Positions 10,434 through 22,283 of a stretch of 64,000 nt of DNA are shown here, in pieces. The position numbers and the translations under genes were made by a program. The notes below the pieces were generated by a model. It worked only from the letters and a program-made list of their open reading frames with translations. It had not been told where the DNA came from and searched no databases. Numbering within the stretch: the first letter of the stretch is position 1; each line of letters opens with the position of its first letter. Origin of the DNA: Deltaproteobacteria bacterium (GTDB lineage Bacteria; Desulfobacterota; Desulfomonilia; UBA1062); assembly GCA_015486075.1 (NCBI GenBank), contig WFSG01000005.1, forward strand, positions 124,001-188,000, read 5' to 3'.

Positions 10434-11012
10434 ATGATACTATACGATTTAGAACAAGCAATTGGTGCTATAGAGGACAGCTTGGAAGAACTGGATAGGC
10501 TATTGGGGCTTACCATTAGTCCTGAAAAGGCGATCAAGTGGAAGGAAAAGACCCTGAGTACCCTTAGACTGATATTTGGGGATGCTTCGGGCTATGTAAA
10601 AGATTTTGAATCAATAGATTTACATACAAGGAATCTATCCCTTTTAGGCATGCATAACGAGGCGGATGATTACCGTTTTGGAATGGAAGACGCCAAGTCA
10701 TTTCTCATAGCGTTGATGGATGAGATAGAGTCTGAGTCTAGAAATACACCAGGGTTGATGGACGTGGAACAGGCGTTTGCCGAGATGAGGCATTACGTGT
10801 CCGAGTATGTCAAGGATCCCCTTATGAAGGATAAGCTTAGTTTCAGGATCACGCGCCTCAGACAGGGCATGCTAACAGGAGATATATCCACTGTAGAGGT
10901 GAAGGATCATATAAAATGGATAAGCGATCTCGATCCAGGCTTGTTTGAGCGCCTTGCACCCCTGCTTACGTGGTATTACCTTCGGAGCGGTAATTCCACC
11001 ATGGTCAGCTGA
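10434..11012 (+). CDS. Unknown helical protein preceding purH
   Basis: A 192-residue acidic protein that I do not recognise. It reads as almost entirely helical, with leucine-rich heptad-like stretches at the N-terminus (DLEQAIGAIEDSLEELDRLLG) and no signal peptide, membrane segment, cysteine pattern or catalytic motif. It lies 38 nt before purH in the same direction and may share its transcript. The ATG at 10434 lacks a ribosome site and sits at the predicted transcription start; an in-frame TTG at 10482 has GAGG 5-8 nt upstream and is an alternative start that would remove 16 residues. Codon use resembles its neighbours, so it looks like a real resident gene. Confidence 0.7.
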   Translation: MILYDLEQAIGAIEDSLEELDRLLGLTISPEKAIKWKEKTLSTLRLIFGDASGYVKDFESIDLHTRNLSLLGMHNEADDYRFGMEDAKSFLIALMDEIESESRNTPGLMDVEQAFAEMRHYVSEYVKDPLMKDKLSFRITRLRQGMLTGDISTVEVKDHIKWISDLDPGLFERLAPLLTWYYLRSGNSTMVS

Positions 11013-15031: not shown

Positions 15032-16720
15032 TTAGGTGCTATCGGTGTCGTTTTCCTTTAAATACTTTTTTATCTTTCTCCTGATATTCTCAGGTAGCTT
15101 TACCCCTAAAGAGTTCAGGCGAGACTCGTATTTTTTAAAGGATATCATGTGCGGGGACGTGGTAGTAAATATCTTTATATAGGACTGTATGCTTCCCTCT
15201 AGTTCTTTTCTGAACAGGATATCTTTGTTAAGTAGATCTTCTACAGGCGCAATAGCGCGATAATTTATGGGTCTGCATACCGACCGATATGCAACGAAAC
15301 GCTGCGTGGGTTCACACTCGAAGTTCTTTTCCCTGATGCTGTTTTCCACTAGATCAAGGTTGATACAGTCCATTATCTCAAACTCATATTTTGTACCCAG
15401 TATCTCGCGGATCATGTCCTGGGCCTTCTTGAAGTAGCTACATCTGTCAAACTCATCAGGGCAATTACTACTGGTTCCACATCTGACGTAGAGTACCATG
15501 TCTATGTCCGAGGTGCTTTGAGACAGGCCCATGTTAACGGATCCCATGATGTCCATAGCAATGTGGCCGTGTATTTTGTTTTCGAGTAGAAGGGCTACCT
15601 CTTCGAGCAGGTCAATCCTGTCCTCTGCCTCACGGGTCTGGAACATCATGAAGAAGTTTTTTATGTCATTGTATAGCTCAATCTCTGGAATATGAGGGTA
15701 TTCTTTACTCTCTTTGTCAAAGTTTTCCCTATTCTTGAGAGCATTATACCTCTCAGCATCTATTATGTCTTCTGCTATTTCGGCATCCTTTATGTAGTAG
15801 TCTGCTATGTCGTAGACGTTACCATTGCTTATCTTTCTAAAGATTACCTTTTTTACTCTAAGTCCATCTAGTTCTATCTGATAGAAAAAGCCTCCCTCGG
15901 ATACCTTTCCTGCTGGGGTCATGATCTCCCCGAAGTTGGATGGGTTGAGGTATACGGTATTGCCCTTTAGCTTGACACCCCAGGCATCGTGTGCATGGCC
16001 GGTGAGACATAGCAGCACATCATGGTTGTCGCAGTAGGTGCGAAGGGAAGGCGATCCAAAGGGGCCGCCGTAGGTGCCTTTGTCGAGTATCCCGTATGCA
16101 GGCTGGTGTGATACAATTATGAGCGGTTTTACAGCATGGAAAAACTGATACATCTCGTTGAGAGTGTCATCCGAGCCCATGCCCGCACCATACTTGACTA
16201 TATATTTCTGGGGAATACCGGGTGTCCACACGTCTGCCCCTCCATAACCTGCTATGCTGAGACCGGCAAGCTGGTACCACCTCAGGTGTAAGTCGTTATC
16301 GTTGAGTGATGTGTACTGGAGGTTCATGTCGTAATTTCCCGGCAGGCAGAATATCTCAGAGTTTTGCTTTGTTAATATTATATTCTTTAGCACCTTGTAC
16401 TTCTGCTGCATTACCCTGCGCGCCCTGATCGTGTATTGTTGATACTTGGAACCCTTGTCCTGTATTTCTTCAGGTGTTGTGGGTTTCTTGAGTAGCTCCT
16501 CTACGAAATCCTCTATAAGCATATGTTCCTTGCCCATCTTTCTCCTGAGACCGTGAAAATATGACTGGAGCTCGTGGTATCTTATGGATGTACCCATGTT
16601 GTAGAACGGCATGTCAATCAGGTCTCCGCCTATGATGTAGATGTCAGCGATGGTTCCGTATAGGAGTTTTTTGACCTTTTCAAAGTCGCCATGGATGTCT
16701 GTTGCATAAATGAGTCTCAT
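15032..16720 (-). CDS. Metallophosphoesterase fused to a pol-beta-type nucleotidyltransferase
   Basis: A 562-residue two-domain protein. The first ~300 residues are a calcineurin-like phosphoesterase with all metal motifs in order: ATDIHGD, IGGDLID, LPGNYD, SHQPAYG and LTGHAHDAWG. After a linker (about 310-375) comes a minimal nucleotidyltransferase core with GSVNMGLSQSTSDIDMVLYV (about 393-412), the GS and DxD pattern of the polymerase-beta superfamily. A C-terminal region with no match that I know completes it. The combination suggests making and breaking a phosphodiester or nucleotidyl modification, but substrate is unknown. The ATG at 16720 is preferred to the in-frame TTG at 16726; no ribosome site is visible and a TACTAT stands 8 nt upstream. 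Confidence 0.85.
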   Translation of the reverse strand: MRLIYATDIHGDFEKVKKLLYGTIADIYIIGGDLIDMPFYNMGTSIRYHELQSYFHGLRRKMGKEHMLIEDFVEELLKKPTTPEEIQDKGSKYQQYTIRARRVMQQKYKVLKNIILTKQNSEIFCLPGNYDMNLQYTSLNDNDLHLRWYQLAGLSIAGYGGADVWTPGIPQKYIVKYGAGMGSDDTLNEMYQFFHAVKPLIIVSHQPAYGILDKGTYGGPFGSPSLRTYCDNHDVLLCLTGHAHDAWGVKLKGNTVYLNPSNFGEIMTPAGKVSEGGFFYQIELDGLRVKKVIFRKISNGNVYDIADYYIKDAEIAEDIIDAERYNALKNRENFDKESKEYPHIPEIELYNDIKNFFMMFQTREAEDRIDLLEEVALLLENKIHGHIAMDIMGSVNMGLSQSTSDIDMVLYVRCGTSSNCPDEFDRCSYFKKAQDMIREILGTKYEFEIMDCINLDLVENSIREKNFECEPTQRFVAYRSVCRPINYRAIAPVEDLLNKDILFRKELEGSIQSYIKIFTTTSPHMISFKKYESRLNSLGVKLPENIRRKIKKYLKENDTDST

Positions 16721-16971: not shown

Positions 16972-18321
16972 CTATCCTATTGCATCACGGATGGCACTGG
17001 CAATCTGCTCGCAGTACCTCCTAGTAGTGTCTTGTTCTGGGCCTTCTACCATAACCCTGCACATGGGCTGTGTTCCGGAATATCTTACCAATACTCTACC
17101 TAGGCGTCCAAGCCGTTTTTCTACTTCATCTATGGCTTGTTTTACACTGGGTATGGTGATTAGGTCTGGCTTGGTTTTTACCGTGATATTTATGAGTTCC
17201 TGTGGGAAGATATCAACTATATTAGAGAGCTCTGATAAGGGTTTATTTCTTTTTAGCATACATTCTATAAGCTTTAGGGCAGTTATTATTCCATCACCCG
17301 TTGGGAGATGGTCAAGAAAAATCATGTGTCCCGAATCTTCACCTCCAAATACAGCACCTAGCCTTAGCATTTCCTCGAGCACGTAGCGATCTCCCACCTG
17401 GGTCACAACGTGTTTTATGCCAAGTCGCTCGCACGCAATATCAACGCCTAGGTTGCTCATAACTGTACTTACCAGTGTATTGTTCCTTAATGTGCCGTCC
17501 TTTTTCATCGTTTCTGCGCATATCATCATTATATGGTCACCCCTGAGAACAGCACCCTTTTCGTCCACTGCTATGAGCCTGTCGCCATCGCCGTCAAAGG
17601 CGAGTCCTATGTCTGAGCCAGTCTCTTTAACCCTCTCTGCGATGTCTTCCGGGTGCTGGGAACCACAATTGTCATTTATGTTAATCCCATCAGGTTGTGC
17701 ATGTATGAACTCTACTTCAGCACCGAGTTCACCAAAGATTTTTGGGGCAACCCTGAATGTTGCGCCGTTACTTAAGTCCATGACAACCTTGAGACCATCC
17801 ATGGAGAGTTCACTAGGGAATGCTTGCTTTAGAAAGACTATGTATCTTCCTATGGCATCGCTAATTCTGTAAGCCCTTCCCATGTCCTTTGCTCCAGGAA
17901 GAAGGCTCTCTAGATTATCCTTGAATATCAATTTTTCTATCTCTAGTTCGTCTTTGTCCGGTAGTTTTTGCCCCTTACTGGAGAAGATCTTTATGCCGTT
18001 ATCATGGAAGGGGTTGTGCGAGGCAGAGATCATGACGCCTGCATCTGCCCTCATGTCTGTGGTGAGGAACGCTATAGCAGGTGTTGGCAGAACTCCTGCT
18101 GCGTAGACATCGCCACCCATTGACGTGATACCTGCTTCTAGCGCGCTTTCGACCATGTATCCGGACAGACGTGTATCTTTACCCACGATAATCCGTGCAT
18201 GGTGCTTGTTTTTTCTGAAATAGATCGTTACTGCCTGGCCAACCTTTACTATTGTAGCAACATCCATAGGTTTACGGTTGACCTCGCCGCGTATGCCATC
18301 TGTCCCAAATATCTTTTTCAT
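16972..18321 (-). CDS. glmM: Phosphoglucosamine mutase
   Basis: Interconverts glucosamine-6-phosphate and glucosamine-1-phosphate on the way to UDP-GlcNAc, the precursor of peptidoglycan and lipid A. The 449 residues match GlmM: FGTDGIRGEVNRKPM at the N-terminus, the phosphoserine loop MISASHNPFHDNGIK, the metal site AFDGDGDRLIAVD, the sugar loop GGEDSGHMI and the phosphate-binding VRYSGTQPMCRVMVEG. The start overlaps the stop of the upstream beta-helix gene by four bases (ATGA), so the two are translationally coupled. Confidence 0.96.
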   Translation of the reverse strand: MKKIFGTDGIRGEVNRKPMDVATIVKVGQAVTIYFRKNKHHARIIVGKDTRLSGYMVESALEAGITSMGGDVYAAGVLPTPAIAFLTTDMRADAGVMISASHNPFHDNGIKIFSSKGQKLPDKDELEIEKLIFKDNLESLLPGAKDMGRAYRISDAIGRYIVFLKQAFPSELSMDGLKVVMDLSNGATFRVAPKIFGELGAEVEFIHAQPDGININDNCGSQHPEDIAERVKETGSDIGLAFDGDGDRLIAVDEKGAVLRGDHIMMICAETMKKDGTLRNNTLVSTVMSNLGVDIACERLGIKHVVTQVGDRYVLEEMLRLGAVFGGEDSGHMIFLDHLPTGDGIITALKLIECMLKRNKPLSELSNIVDIFPQELINITVKTKPDLITIPSVKQAIDEVEKRLGRLGRVLVRYSGTQPMCRVMVEGPEQDTTRRYCEQIASAIRDAIG

Positions 18322-19580
18322 GCTATAAGGTTATCCTCTTTTCCAGAAGCTTCTTGGATTAAAGCCTTCTTTAATGATGGCATATACGGACCTAGTGCCT
18401 CTAGGTTGTCCTGTACCACTTGATATAGCCATGCTGTGCCCCTAACCGATGTCTCTTTATCAAGATTTTTTATGGCATCTATATAATCGATTCCCTTTCT
18501 GGCCTTTTCTTCAGGATTGAATGCCTTAAGAAATTCATGCATCAGTCTGTTTGCTCGTGCTGAGTGGGTCTCCTTGTCTAATAAGCCGATCACCTGATCT
18601 ACATCTTGCAAGAGATTATCTCCTTGTATATTTTTTCTTTCGCTCGCGTCCCTAGTGGCTAAGAACTTTATAAGCCTTTTCAATCTTTCAGACTTGGCAA
18701 TATCCAGTATCATAAGGGCGTTAGTGATAATCTTATCGCCCATGGGCTTTGCCTGGAAGAAAGGTCTTCTTGCATTGGAATACCATTGCCTTAGCGCGAT
18801 CAGGTTCGCTATGTATAGAACGTTATTAAACAATACCCTTTTCATCCTTTTTGGGGAGTAGGTGGTGAGATCTTTCGAGAATTCCCTGTTGGCTGTACTT
18901 ACGAGCTGGTTCTGCTTTAGGACATCGTTTCTCAATATGGATCCTGCGCTTGAGACGGTTCCAAATGCTATCCTGGTTGGTCCTACAATGCCACCCTGGC
19001 CACCTAAAAATATGCGTGGCTCTTTTAACATTACACCCCTTGGTACATCCCCTATAAGGGATGGGGTTGCCTTCTGACCGTCTGGCGAAAAGTTGAAGTG
19101 AATAAAGGAACTACCTATCTCTGTATGATCGTCTGGTCCCGTGCCCCCAGCCACCAAGCAGTCGCACAGATTTATCAGGCTGCCGAGTGTAACATAGGGC
19201 ATTAAAATGGTCTGCTTCAGTCCTACTGCATGTGCTGCTTTTACCTGTTCCTCAACTATGCAGGCCTCCCTGACATGTGCTGGCATACCCATGGTGGACC
19301 CTGATAAGAATACTGAGTTCCTGAAATATCCACCCTTCAACTCTACTCCGGAATCAAGTATACAATTCTCAATGGTTACGGGACCCTCGAGGCCGAGCTC
19401 TACACCTGGCGCAATTACGGTGTCTTTTCCTCTGATCCTTGAACCAGGGTATATAATTGTATCCTTGCCGGATATGTTATCCAGGTTCACTTCTGGGGAT
19501 ATCCATGTGTTATTAGGTGCAACAATCTTTGCACCCTTGCGGATGAGTTGTTCTATCCGGCGGTCCATAATGAAATTCAT
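18318..19580 (-). CDS. Left-handed beta-helix protein (GlmU C-domain-like) coupled to glmM
   Basis: A 420-residue protein whose first ~230 residues read as hexapeptide repeats of a left-handed beta-helix (for example ISPEVNLDNISGKDTI, YPGSRIRGKDTVI, APGVELGL, IENCILDSGVEL), as in the acetyltransferase half of GlmU. No nucleotidyltransferase domain is present. The remaining ~190 residues are helical and unfamiliar. The ATGA overlap with glmM argues for a role in UDP-GlcNAc or another nucleotide-sugar step, but whether it has acetyltransferase activity is not decidable here. An in-frame ATG at 19568 is an alternative start. Neither start has a clear ribosome site close by; AAGG is 12 nt upstream of the first. 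Confidence 0.75.
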   Translation of the reverse strand: MNFIMDRRIEQLIRKGAKIVAPNNTWISPEVNLDNISGKDTIIYPGSRIRGKDTVIAPGVELGLEGPVTIENCILDSGVELKGGYFRNSVFLSGSTMGMPAHVREACIVEEQVKAAHAVGLKQTILMPYVTLGSLINLCDCLVAGGTGPDDHTEIGSSFIHFNFSPDGQKATPSLIGDVPRGVMLKEPRIFLGGQGGIVGPTRIAFGTVSSAGSILRNDVLKQNQLVSTANREFSKDLTTYSPKRMKRVLFNNVLYIANLIALRQWYSNARRPFFQAKPMGDKIITNALMILDIAKSERLKRLIKFLATRDASERKNIQGDNLLQDVDQVIGLLDKETHSARANRLMHEFLKAFNPEEKARKGIDYIDAIKNLDKETSVRGTAWLYQVVQDNLEALGPYMPSLKKALIQEASGKEDNLIA

Positions 19581-19637: not shown

Positions 19638-22283
19638 TCAGGAAGGTCTGCCACGGGCTTTTGGTTTTGTGGTCTCTAAGAACCTTTTTGCAAATTCAAT
19701 CGCCTCTTTTGCGTCCTTTATTTCTCCATTCAGTCCCTTTTCCTTTATTGTATTTAAACAATCACCTAGGTCCTTACTTTCCCTGAAGCCTATGGAGATG
19801 AGGTCCTTACCTGTTACAGGTGGCTTGTAGTTACGCCAGGTCGTAATGTAGGAGGATATCATCTTTTTTACTACAGGGCTTTTTGTCCTTGCCATTGCGT
19901 AAAGTATGTCGGCTATCTCCTTGTTCTCAAGGAGCCGTACCACCCATGACGGGCTCTTGGGACTTTTTTTTGCAAATTCCTTAAGAATGGCTAGCACGGT
20001 CTCACGCGAGGCAAGCAGTCTCCTTATCTCACGTGGTTCAAGCCCCAATGATGTTAGTAGAGAGATTGCTCTTGATGATTTTACGCTTCCTATGAGTGCC
20101 AGAATGTAGAGGGTCCAGCTCTGTACTGCTTCATGAGTGTAAAGCAAGTTGAACCAGGTGAGAGTTTCCCTGATACTTGAAAACAGATCTTTCTTTGAGC
20201 TATTGAAATCGAGGTAAGGATGTATGGCATTAAGTATCCCCAGTTCTCTTAGTCTTGTCATGCAGGGTATAGGGTCTTTCTCTGAGAGGATCTGGGTTAA
20301 TTCGTGGAATATGCGCCTACTTGATACCTCTTTTAAGAAGCCTGCTTTTATGGCTGATTGAACAAGAGATTGTGTTTGCTTGCCAAGGGAAAAGCCAAAA
20401 CGTTGTTCAAACCTTATTGCCCTAAGGATCCTTGACGGGTCTTCCACGAAGCTCAAGGAGTGGAGGACCCTGATACGTCTTTCCTTCAGATCCCTCTGTG
20501 CCCCGAAGTAATCCACTAATTCCCCGAATCTTTGGGGGTTGAGGGCTATTGCCATGGTGTTTATGGTAAAGTCTCTCCTGTACAGGTCGAGTTTCAATGT
20601 TGATTCCTCCACCTGAGGAAGGTCACCCGGGTAGTTGTAGTATTCTAGCCTAGCTGTGGCAATGTCTATATGTCTATGGCCCTTCAAGGTTATCACAGCT
20701 GTCTTGAACTTATCATGACACGCAACCCTTGCATTGAGGCTTTTCGATAGTGCCTTGGCAAAGGAGATGCCATCCCCTTCCACAACCAAGTCAATATCTA
20801 GATTGTCAATTCTCAATAGCATGTCCCTTACAATTCCTCCCACAAGGTACACGTTGAATCCCTTTGAGTCAGCCAGTTCACCGGCATCTATAAGCATATT
20901 ATAAAGATCCTGCGGTAACCTTTCCTTAAGGATATTCTTTACAGGTTTGGTCCGTGATGCAGGGTATGCTGAACCCTCTATCCGTGTCATCTTATCATGC
21001 ATTACCCTTAGTAGGTCTGTCCTGGTTATCACACCTTCAACGCTAGTGCCTGATGTGACAGGAAGTAGCCTCTGGTTTTCGTCTATTATTATCTTTCTTA
21101 TATCCCATACCGCGGCGTCGGGATGCACGGATTTTATGTCTCGGATCATGTATTCCTTGACAGGAAAATCGCCAAGCCCGTGCGCCAGCGCCCTGGATAC
21201 TATCTGCCTCGTTATTATACCCGCTATTCTTCTACCAGTGGTTGTAACAACCACTGCATTTATATTGTACCTGTTCAGGATTTGCCTGGCATATTCCATG
21301 GTTGTGTTGACCATGATAGATTTTACAGGAAAAGTCATTATATCCCTTGCTGTAATCAATGGCTTTGTCTCTTTTTCTAGTATATGTATAAGCCTCTGTT
21401 CTGTCTGCTCAAGTGTAATGCCTTTTACGGTTGCTGCTGCAGCTGTTGGGTGCCCTCCACCTCCAAAATGTTCGCTTATCTTGGCCGTGTTGACCTGGGG
21501 GGAGGAACTTCTTGCAACTAGGTATATCCTGTCGCCCATAAGCCCGAGAGCGAAAACAGCATCTGGCGAATGCATGTCCAAGAGGTTGTGCACCAGCATG
21601 GCAAAGTCGCCCACGTAAACGTAGGATATGCATTTAGTTACGAGGATCTTGCTGCCGTTTATTATGAGGGTGTAGGCATTCTTTATGAGCTGGTCTAGTA
21701 TATCTACCTGCTCTGGTGTAAGAGTTTTGGAGATGGTTCTAGAGACCTGCTTCAGATCAGCACCCCATTTTAGTAGTTCACCCATGGCCATGCAGTCTTC
21801 AGGTCTGGTAGATGGGTACAAAAGAGAGCCAGTATCCTCGTATATACCTATGGCCATGATGGTTGCCTCCTCGGGACTTGGTACTATGCCTTTTTGCTTT
21901 AGAAAACGTATCATGAGAGTAGTATTTGCACCTAGCTCTTGGCTGTAATCTATATCTGTGGTTATGTCATCAGGTGAGGGGGGGTGATGATCGTATACAA
22001 TTACCTTGACCTCGCCTCTTTTAACTATGGAAGAGAACACTCCAATCCTGGAGAGCTGCTTGGTATCCACGAGTATAATCTTTTTTATATCATCCAGGTT
22101 AATATCTTTTAGGTTGAATATATCAAGTTTTTTTGCCAGCTCGCTGTGACTAAGATAGTCTCGCAAGCCCTTTTCTTGGGATCCAGGGAAAACAAGCTTT
22201 GCCCGTGGGTGAAGCAGCTTTGCACAGATCATGGATGCAAATGCATCGAAGTCTGTATTGAGGTGAGTTGTGATTACTTCCAT
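19638..22283 (-). CDS. DHH phosphoesterase - CBS pair - poly(A) polymerase/CCA transferase fusion
   Basis: An 881-residue fusion. About 1-300 is a DHH/DHHA1 phosphoesterase (THLNTDFDAFASM, VYDHHPPSPDD, GGGGHPTAAAATV); about 310-430 holds two CBS domains; about 440-700 is the class II nucleotidyltransferase head (VYLVGGIVRDMLLRIDNLDID with the catalytic DxD, then DLYRRDFTINTMAI and EDPSRILRAIRF); the C-terminus is the helical tRNA-binding tail. Such fusions are annotated as tRNA nucleotidyltransferases in deltaproteobacteria; they may add only A or the full CCA. The tRNA in this window already encodes CCA, so a repair or A-adding role is plausible. AAGGAGG 5 nt before the ATG fixes the start. 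Confidence 0.92.
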   Translation of the reverse strand: MEVITTHLNTDFDAFASMICAKLLHPRAKLVFPGSQEKGLRDYLSHSELAKKLDIFNLKDINLDDIKKIILVDTKQLSRIGVFSSIVKRGEVKVIVYDHHPPSPDDITTDIDYSQELGANTTLMIRFLKQKGIVPSPEEATIMAIGIYEDTGSLLYPSTRPEDCMAMGELLKWGADLKQVSRTISKTLTPEQVDILDQLIKNAYTLIINGSKILVTKCISYVYVGDFAMLVHNLLDMHSPDAVFALGLMGDRIYLVARSSSPQVNTAKISEHFGGGGHPTAAAATVKGITLEQTEQRLIHILEKETKPLITARDIMTFPVKSIMVNTTMEYARQILNRYNINAVVVTTTGRRIAGIITRQIVSRALAHGLGDFPVKEYMIRDIKSVHPDAAVWDIRKIIIDENQRLLPVTSGTSVEGVITRTDLLRVMHDKMTRIEGSAYPASRTKPVKNILKERLPQDLYNMLIDAGELADSKGFNVYLVGGIVRDMLLRIDNLDIDLVVEGDGISFAKALSKSLNARVACHDKFKTAVITLKGHRHIDIATARLEYYNYPGDLPQVEESTLKLDLYRRDFTINTMAIALNPQRFGELVDYFGAQRDLKERRIRVLHSLSFVEDPSRILRAIRFEQRFGFSLGKQTQSLVQSAIKAGFLKEVSSRRIFHELTQILSEKDPIPCMTRLRELGILNAIHPYLDFNSSKKDLFSSIRETLTWFNLLYTHEAVQSWTLYILALIGSVKSSRAISLLTSLGLEPREIRRLLASRETVLAILKEFAKKSPKSPSWVVRLLENKEIADILYAMARTKSPVVKKMISSYITTWRNYKPPVTGKDLISIGFRESKDLGDCLNTIKEKGLNGEIKDAKEAIEFAKRFLETTKPKARGRPS

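What the first reader, a model, noticed from the sequence alone, without database searches (positions are those of the whole stretch)
15032..16720. Metallophosphoesterase fused to a pol-beta-type nucleotidyltransferase
One protein combines five intact phosphoesterase metal motifs with a GS...DxD nucleotidyltransferase core. One domain could attach and the other remove a nucleotidyl group, or act on a cyclic or oligo-nucleotide; both would resemble a toxin/antitoxin or signalling enzyme. The C-terminal ~130 residues are unfamiliar.
Basis: partly seen in the sequence, partly recalled or inferred. Interest (0 to 1): 0.6.

Follow-up and report, generated by a model that had tools for sequence, protein, structure and literature searches.

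The report
Conserved phosphoesterase–nucleotidyltransferase fusion enzyme
Two enzymes, one that should attach nucleotides and one that should cut phosphate bonds, are joined in a single bacterial protein (or made from neighbouring genes in spirochaetes) and are inherited together, so they very probably work as one undescribed machine whose target is not yet known.

Summary
Window 15032-16720 (-) encodes a 562-aa protein with an N-terminal calcineurin-like metallophosphoesterase (MPE, residues 1-320) and a C-terminal pol-beta-type nucleotidyltransferase (NTase, 345-562; GS...SDxD plus a third Asp, D451). Both active sites are strongly conserved. The fusion recurs in at least 80 GTDB records, from Syntrophia-type Desulfobacterota and Spirochaetota. 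In about as many spirochaete genomes the same two proteins are separate genes, nearly always adjacent, often with overlapping stop/start codons. Across 296 Spirochaetota genomes the halves co-occur in 74, with one NTase-only genome and no MPE-only genome. This is an obligate two-enzyme module. No curated family covers the NTase; its fold matches nothing significantly beyond the pol-beta core, and its last ~100 residues form an unmatched helical bundle. The phosphoesterase has Tyr instead of the catalytic His (GNYD), which argues against 2',3'-cyclic-phosphate end healing. tRNA linkage, plasmid/phage carriage and a toxin partner were looked for and not found. Best explanation (inferred, ~0.4): opposed or coupled activities on one nucleotidylated substrate, GlnD-like in logic with MPE in place of HD; substrate unknown. 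In one family the NTase has lost its active site and then disappeared, leaving the MPE.

The parts
15032..16720 (-). CDS of the 562-aa MPE-NTase fusion protein (stop codon 15032-15034)
   Evidence: 72% identical full-length homologues
15761..16720 (-). Metallophosphoesterase domain, residues 1-320
   Evidence: Pfam PF00149 E=1e-8; separate gene of ~340 aa in spirochaetes
16691..16699 (-). MPE motif I, D8-I-H10
   Evidence: invariant in A2
16622..16627 (-). MPE motif II, G32-D33
   Evidence: invariant
16328..16339 (-). MPE motif III, G128-N-Y-D131; Tyr replaces the usual His
   Evidence: 112 family members GNYD, 2 GNHD
16106..16108 (-). MPE motif IV, H205
   Evidence: invariant
15989..16000 (-). 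MPE motif V, G241-H-A-H244
   Evidence: invariant
15689..15760 (-). Linker between the domains, residues ~321-344; the gene boundary lies here in split forms
   Evidence: split MPE ends at ~305-330 and split NTase begins at ~337-347 of the profile
15341..15688 (-). NTase palm core, residues ~345-460
   Evidence: AF2 model m603cc100bc94 mean pLDDT 89.4; Pfam PF22600/PF01909
15539..15544 (-). NTase signature G393-S394
   Evidence: invariant in 61 NTases
15500..15511 (-). NTase signature S404-D405-I-D407 (metal-binding aspartates)
   Evidence: invariant in 61 NTases; one D407A among the 32 sequences of A2
15368..15370 (-). Third NTase carboxylate, D451
   Evidence: invariant in 61 NTases
15035..15340 (-). 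C-terminal helical bundle, residues ~461-562, with the conserved motif HxxSFxKYxxR
   Evidence: no significant PDB or viral structure match

Best explanation
A two-enzyme module in one chain. SHOWN: an MPE and an NTase with conserved active sites, inherited together across two phyla, fused in one lineage and mostly in a tight operon in the other. INFERRED: the NTase transfers an NMP from an NTP to an acceptor (a protein, a small molecule or an RNA end), and the MPE hydrolyses a linear phosphodiester or phosphoanhydride on the same substrate, removing or editing the nucleotidyl group. The logic is that of GlnD (NTase plus HD hydrolase), with a calcineurin-like phosphoesterase as the eraser. Fusion or translational coupling keeps the two activities at equal amounts. 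The acceptor is not identified; the conserved C-terminal helical bundle of the NTase is the likeliest acceptor-binding part.
For: Co-occurrence: 74 of 75 Spirochaetota genomes with the NTase also have the MPE, and no genome has the MPE without the NTase (Fisher p=7e-70; genomes are related, so this p is nominal). The 74 are about 33 fused, 35 split-adjacent and 6 split-unlinked. In Desulfobacterota every intact NTase hit (15 of 15) is fused to the MPE. Of 22 split junctions examined, 15 have the NTase start codon overlapping the MPE stop codon (ATGA, GTGA, TAATG). Split pairs keep each other while the other neighbours differ between lineages. One fused/split change on the MPE tree and a single fused clade on the NTase tree (98); distances of the two partners correlate (r=0.93 over all, 0.67 in split pairs, Mantel p=0.0005). 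Tyr in motif III: MPEs lacking this His (YfcE, GNCD) cleave linear phosphodiesters such as bis-pNPP but not phosphomonoesters or cAMP/cGMP (PMC4320098), and YfcE acts on 2',3'-cNMP not at all or very slowly (PMC3407115).
Against: No substrate evidence at all. In family f67 the MPE persists with a dead NTase (L181, L182) or with none (L183), so the MPE can have a use of its own; in two of those three the Tyr has become His, suggesting a changed reaction. Sequential action (MPE prepares an end, NTase extends it) predicts the same co-inheritance. The fusion's neighbours give no functional hint.
Confidence: 0.4

Rival explanations
1. RNA 3'-end processing: the MPE cleans or trims RNA ends and the NTase adds nucleotides, like the CCA-adding enzyme with its HD domain, or a bacterial terminal nucleotidyltransferase with its own trimming enzyme.
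For: The NTase palm is nearest, by profile, to MTPAP/Cid1-type terminal nucleotidyltransferases (53 of 61 members hit PF22600 at E<=1, best 3.1e-8; Cid1 best PDB profile hit, E=0.035). The MPE surviving without the NTase in f67 fits a substrate not made by the NTase.
Against: No PAP-associated or RNA-binding domain is found. GNYD lacks the His that in CthPnkp, Rv0805 and engineered YfcE supports 2',3'-cyclic phosphodiesterase activity (PMC3407115, which also reports an exception). No tRNA linkage in 51 loci. The genome has a separate PolyA_pol-type NTase 3 kb away.
Confidence: 0.27
2. Signalling-nucleotide metabolism: the NTase makes a cyclic or linear (oligo)nucleotide and the MPE degrades it.
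For: Weak similarity of the NTase to CBASS oligonucleotide cyclase models (PADLOC Cyclase E=0.00066 for the window NTase, 10 of 61 members at E<=1).
Against: Similarity is confined to the shared palm; no CBASS effector or Cap genes among recurring neighbours; YfcE, also without the His, does not cleave cAMP or cGMP (PMC4320098).
Confidence: 0.13
3. Toxin-antitoxin or defence module, with a minimal-NTase (MntA-like) AMPylator controlling the MPE as toxin.
For: 23 of 61 NTases touch the MntA antitoxin model (best E=5.7e-4); MNT structures top the fold search (E=0.07, not significant); the MPE resembles PADLOC candidate PDC-S10 (E=4.6e-12).
Against: No plasmid, phage or viral-contig relatives; one copy in most genomes and clade-wise inheritance; both halves kept fused in a whole clade.
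Confidence: 0.08
4. Two consecutive steps of a small-molecule or cell-envelope pathway (an acceptor alcohol is nucleotidylated, the product is cleaved to a phospho-product).
For: In about 11 spirochaete loci a glycosyltransferase gene lies directly before the MPE, also where the NTase has moved away (cluster c2).
Against: Other lineages have an M50 protease, a protein of unknown function or nothing shared in that place; no such neighbour recurs in Desulfobacterota.
Confidence: 0.12

Closest known systems
GlnD uridylyltransferase/uridylyl-removing enzyme
   Same: NTase plus metal-dependent hydrolase in one chain, presumed opposed activities.
   Different: Hydrolase is HD in GlnD (own knowledge), calcineurin-like MPE here; no ACT domains found; no significant match to its NTase beyond the shared palm signature.
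CCA-adding enzyme with HD domain; A-adding tRNA nucleotidyltransferase fused to DHH and CBS
   Same: NTase joined to a phosphoesterase. The second kind occurs 3 kb away in this window (19638-22283).
   Different: Different phosphoesterase fold and different NTase class (PolyA_pol head and RNA-binding domains are absent here).
YfcE / aq_1956 / TT1561-type metallophosphoesterases
   Same: Same fold (Foldseek 2yvt E=3.4e-7, 3ck2, 1uf3); no His in motif III, as in YfcE (GNCD).
   Different: Longer, with a helical insert (residues ~42-116) and extra C-terminal strands; Tyr at the His position; fused or coupled to an NTase.
Non-canonical poly(A)/poly(U) polymerases (Cid1, MTPAP, CutA)
   Same: Palm signature GSxxxGxxxxxSDxD and weak profile similarity.
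   Different: No PAP-associated domain; helical bundle unmatched; Foldseek E>=0.14.
MNT antitoxin (MntA) of HEPN-MNT systems
   Same: Small NTase with the same palm signature; best fold-search hit, not significant.
   Different: Partner is an MPE, not a HEPN RNase; not found on mobile elements.

Membership tests
Calcineurin-like metallophosphoesterase superfamily (PF00149) | Score above the Pfam cut-off and metal ligands D-x-H, GD, GN-x-[DE], H, GH-x-H | tested here: met
   36.3 bits against 21.5; ligands invariant
Calcineurin-like metallophosphoesterase superfamily (PF00149) | Catalytic His of GNH[DE] (usual, not universal) | tested here: not met
   Tyr in 112 family members, His in 2; known subclass C (YfcE) also lacks it (PMC4320098)
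Pol-beta nucleotidyltransferase superfamily | hG[GS]...Dh[DE]h plus a third carboxylate on the next core strand | tested here: met
   G393-S394, D405, D407, D451 invariant in 61 sequences; D451 lies in strand 112-119 of the NTase model
Pol-beta nucleotidyltransferase superfamily | Curated domain model above its cut-off for this protein | tested here: not met
   PF22600 22.8-24.7 bits against 27; PF01909 13.5 against 21; relatives score better, but no curated model is built on this family
Non-canonical poly(A) polymerase / TENT | PAP-associated domain and nucleotide-recognition motif after the palm | tested here: not met
   No such Pfam match among 61 members in the 25 families shown; no significant structural match
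CCA-adding enzyme / bacterial poly(A) polymerase | PolyA_pol head and RNA-binding domains (PF01743, PF12627) | tested here: not met
   No match; present in the neighbour at 19638-22283
HEPN-MNT type VII toxin-antitoxin | Adjacent HEPN toxin gene | tested here: not met
   No HEPN partner recurs among the clustered neighbours; the recurring partner is the MPE. Not every neighbour was scanned
CBASS CD-NTase | Strong CD-NTase model match and linked effector | tested here: not met
   E=0.00066 over the palm only; no effector among recurring neighbours
GlnD-like bifunctional writer/eraser | Opposed transfer and removal on the same acceptor | not testable with these tools
   Needs biochemistry
GlnD-like bifunctional writer/eraser | HD hydrolase and ACT domains | tested here: not met
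   None found by Pfam; the resemblance is in logic only

The most novel reading that the evidence does not exclude
A new bacterial nucleotidyl writer-eraser enzyme in which a calcineurin-like phosphoesterase removes what a fused NTase attaches, controlling a still unknown protein or RNA in syntrophic Desulfobacterota and many spirochaetes.
Probability: 0.3. Interest if true: 0.75.

Novelty: new variant of a known kind. Interest (0 to 1): 0.52.

Why it matters
It turns two 'hypothetical' annotations into one testable enzyme. Gene pairs likely to be annotated separately as a phosphoesterase and an NTase in spirochaetes are shown to be one functional unit by fusion, operon and co-inheritance. If the activities are opposed, it would be a writer-eraser system built on a phosphoesterase fold for which I found no such role described; if they are sequential, it would be a bacterial RNA-end enzyme. 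The decayed f67 members are natural controls for separating the two activities.

Tried and rejected
Plasmid and phage tblastn: no match. Viral contigs: no relative. tRNA linkage: none in 51 loci. Conserved gene neighbourhood of the fusion: only clade-level synteny. Full-length AF2 from 14 sequences was poor (pLDDT 67.7, pTM 0.53), so no domain arrangement is claimed; the NTase was refolded from 61 sequences (pLDDT 89.4). Sequence search of the PDB with the whole profile: only MPPED2 at E=0.035 as a plausible hit. A possible Cys cluster after the SDxD strand (C414, C427 mostly conserved) was considered as a metal site, but the middle Cys is variable and some clades lack C414, so no zinc site is claimed. 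Literature searches found no description of this pairing; most subscription papers are not held. TA and CBASS readings were rejected on context. Two stray NTase-like fragments with stops in small genomes (G346, G349) are too weak to interpret.

Full report
WHAT IS THERE. The reading frame 15032-16720 on the minus strand codes for 562 residues. Residues 1-320 are a calcineurin-like metallophosphoesterase (PF00149, 36.3 bits, cut-off 21.5). Residues 345-562 are a nucleotidyltransferase: Pfam gives only a sub-threshold match to MTPAP-like_central (22.8 bits, cut-off 27), but the full signature GSxxxGxxxxxSDxD and a third aspartate, D451, are present. NCBIfam has no family for it. The gene follows a phosphoglucomutase/phosphomannomutase-family (GlmM-type) gene and tRNA-Ala on the same strand and faces a Sua5/YrdC gene.

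CONSERVATION. A 99-genome search found full-length relatives in much of the window's own GTDB family and a few other families of the phylum. A scan of GTDB species genomes gave 115 loci, of which the 80 best are held; record titles name Deltaproteobacteria/Syntrophaceae/Smithellaceae and Spirochaetes (one is an untitled 'uncultured bacterium'). In 32 aligned fusions all MPE metal ligands are invariant, and so are G393, S394, S404, D405 and D451; D407 is Ala in one bin only. Third codon positions diverge three to four times more than second positions in both domains.

FUSION AND SPLIT FORMS. In 296 Spirochaetota genomes the profile of the fusion and the profile of the NTase alone were searched. 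By my reading of these tables 33 genomes carry the fusion (some cut by contig ends), 35 carry two adjacent genes (including about five with one in-frame stop between the halves), 6 carry both genes apart (in at least one, G313, contig ends leave this unsure), one (G289) carries the NTase alone, and none carries the MPE of this family alone. Twenty-two split junctions were read: in ten the NTase start overlaps the MPE stop as ATGA, in one as GTGA, in four as TAATG, and the rest lie within short gaps. Neighbours differ between lineages: a glycosyltransferase before the MPE in about eleven loci, an M50 peptidase and a 7TM-HD protein in six, a protein without Pfam match in six. In 395 genomes of the window's phylum all 15 intact NTases are fused. 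The NTase tree joins all fused forms (support 98); the MPE tree needs one fused/split change. The trees are unrooted, so fusion or fission cannot be told apart. Fused proteins of the two phyla are 55-62% identical to the window protein and interleave, which suggests transfer between phyla; direction not determined.

DECAY IN ONE FAMILY. In family f67 of the phylum, L181 and L182 keep the MPE but their C-terminal domain has neither GS nor DxD, and L183 has a 338-residue MPE with the NTase gone, with the same GGDEF-type gene next door (cluster c29). Two of these three have GNHD where the rest of the family has GNYD. This shows that the MPE can be kept without a working NTase, and it is the main evidence against a pure writer-eraser pair, unless these members have taken up another function.

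STRUCTURE. The NTase from 61 sequences gives a confident model (mean pLDDT 89.4, pTM 0.86): two N-terminal helices, a three-strand palm with D451 on the third strand, and a C-terminal helical bundle. Against the PDB nothing reaches E<=0.001; the best are MNT, DrrA, Cid1, CutA and TUT7 at E 0.07-0.2. Against viral models likewise. So the core is pol-beta-like, and the rest has no close solved relative. The full-length model is poor but its MPE part matches aq_1956 (E=3.4e-7), COG0622 proteins, TT1561 and VPS29.

HOW IT PROBABLY WORKS. Obligate co-inheritance, equal dosage by fusion or coupling, and two intact active sites point to one functional unit. The motif III His of this superfamily is needed for 2',3'-cyclic nucleotide cleavage in CthPnkp and Rv0805 and confers it on YfcE when put in place of Cys; a zebrafish enzyme is an exception (PMC3407115). 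YfcE cleaves linear diester model substrates but not monoesters, cAMP or cGMP (PMC4320098). The Tyr here therefore points to a linear diester or anhydride as the MPE substrate, which is what a nucleotidylated protein, metabolite or RNA end would offer. That favours removal or editing of a nucleotidyl group over end healing. This step is inference; I put it at 0.4, RNA-end processing at 0.27.

WHAT IT IS NOT. It is not a CCA-adding enzyme or poly(A) polymerase by domain content; the window has one of those, fused to DHH and CBS domains, at 19638-22283. No HEPN partner, CBASS effector, plasmid or phage carriage was found. tRNA linkage is not conserved.

NOVELTY. Both superfamilies are known; the pairing as a conserved module, the NTase family with its own C-terminal bundle, and the natural decay series were not found described in the papers held. 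I rate it a new variant of a known kind.

Noticed in passing
window 19638-22283 (-): An 881-aa protein combining DHH/DHHA1 phosphoesterase, two CBS domains and a PolyA_pol/RNA-binding tRNA nucleotidyltransferase: another phosphoesterase-NTase fusion 3 kb from the finding.
   Followed up: partly
L181 6821-8590, L182 6530-8152, L183 6988-8001: Stepwise decay and loss of the NTase domain with the MPE kept, in one Desulfobacterota family, next to a GGDEF-type gene; Tyr to His change in motif III in two of the three.
   Followed up: partly
L171 6442-7101, L173 6067-6768, L175 6747-7436, L176 6664-7512: A separate deep clade of stand-alone NTases in spirochaetes, away from any MPE gene; in two genomes (L173, L176) it occurs beside a complete MPE/NTase pair elsewhere in the genome.
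   Followed up: no
L107 and L110 (6001-7656): Second, diverged fusion copies (45% identical) in spirochaete genomes that also carry the main fusion (L106, L055).
   Followed up: no
L104 5378-7036: Only whole homologue in the GTDB scan with a broken SDxD (D407A); metagenome bin, may be an error.
   Followed up: no
window 18318-19580 (-) and 10434-11012 (+): 420-aa protein that reads like a left-handed beta-helix protein, and a 192-aa protein; neither has a Pfam match at E<=0.001.
   Followed up: no
L153-L155, L161, L163, L172: A ~235-aa protein without Pfam match lies directly before the MPE gene in one spirochaete lineage (cluster c10): possible third partner there.
   Followed up: no
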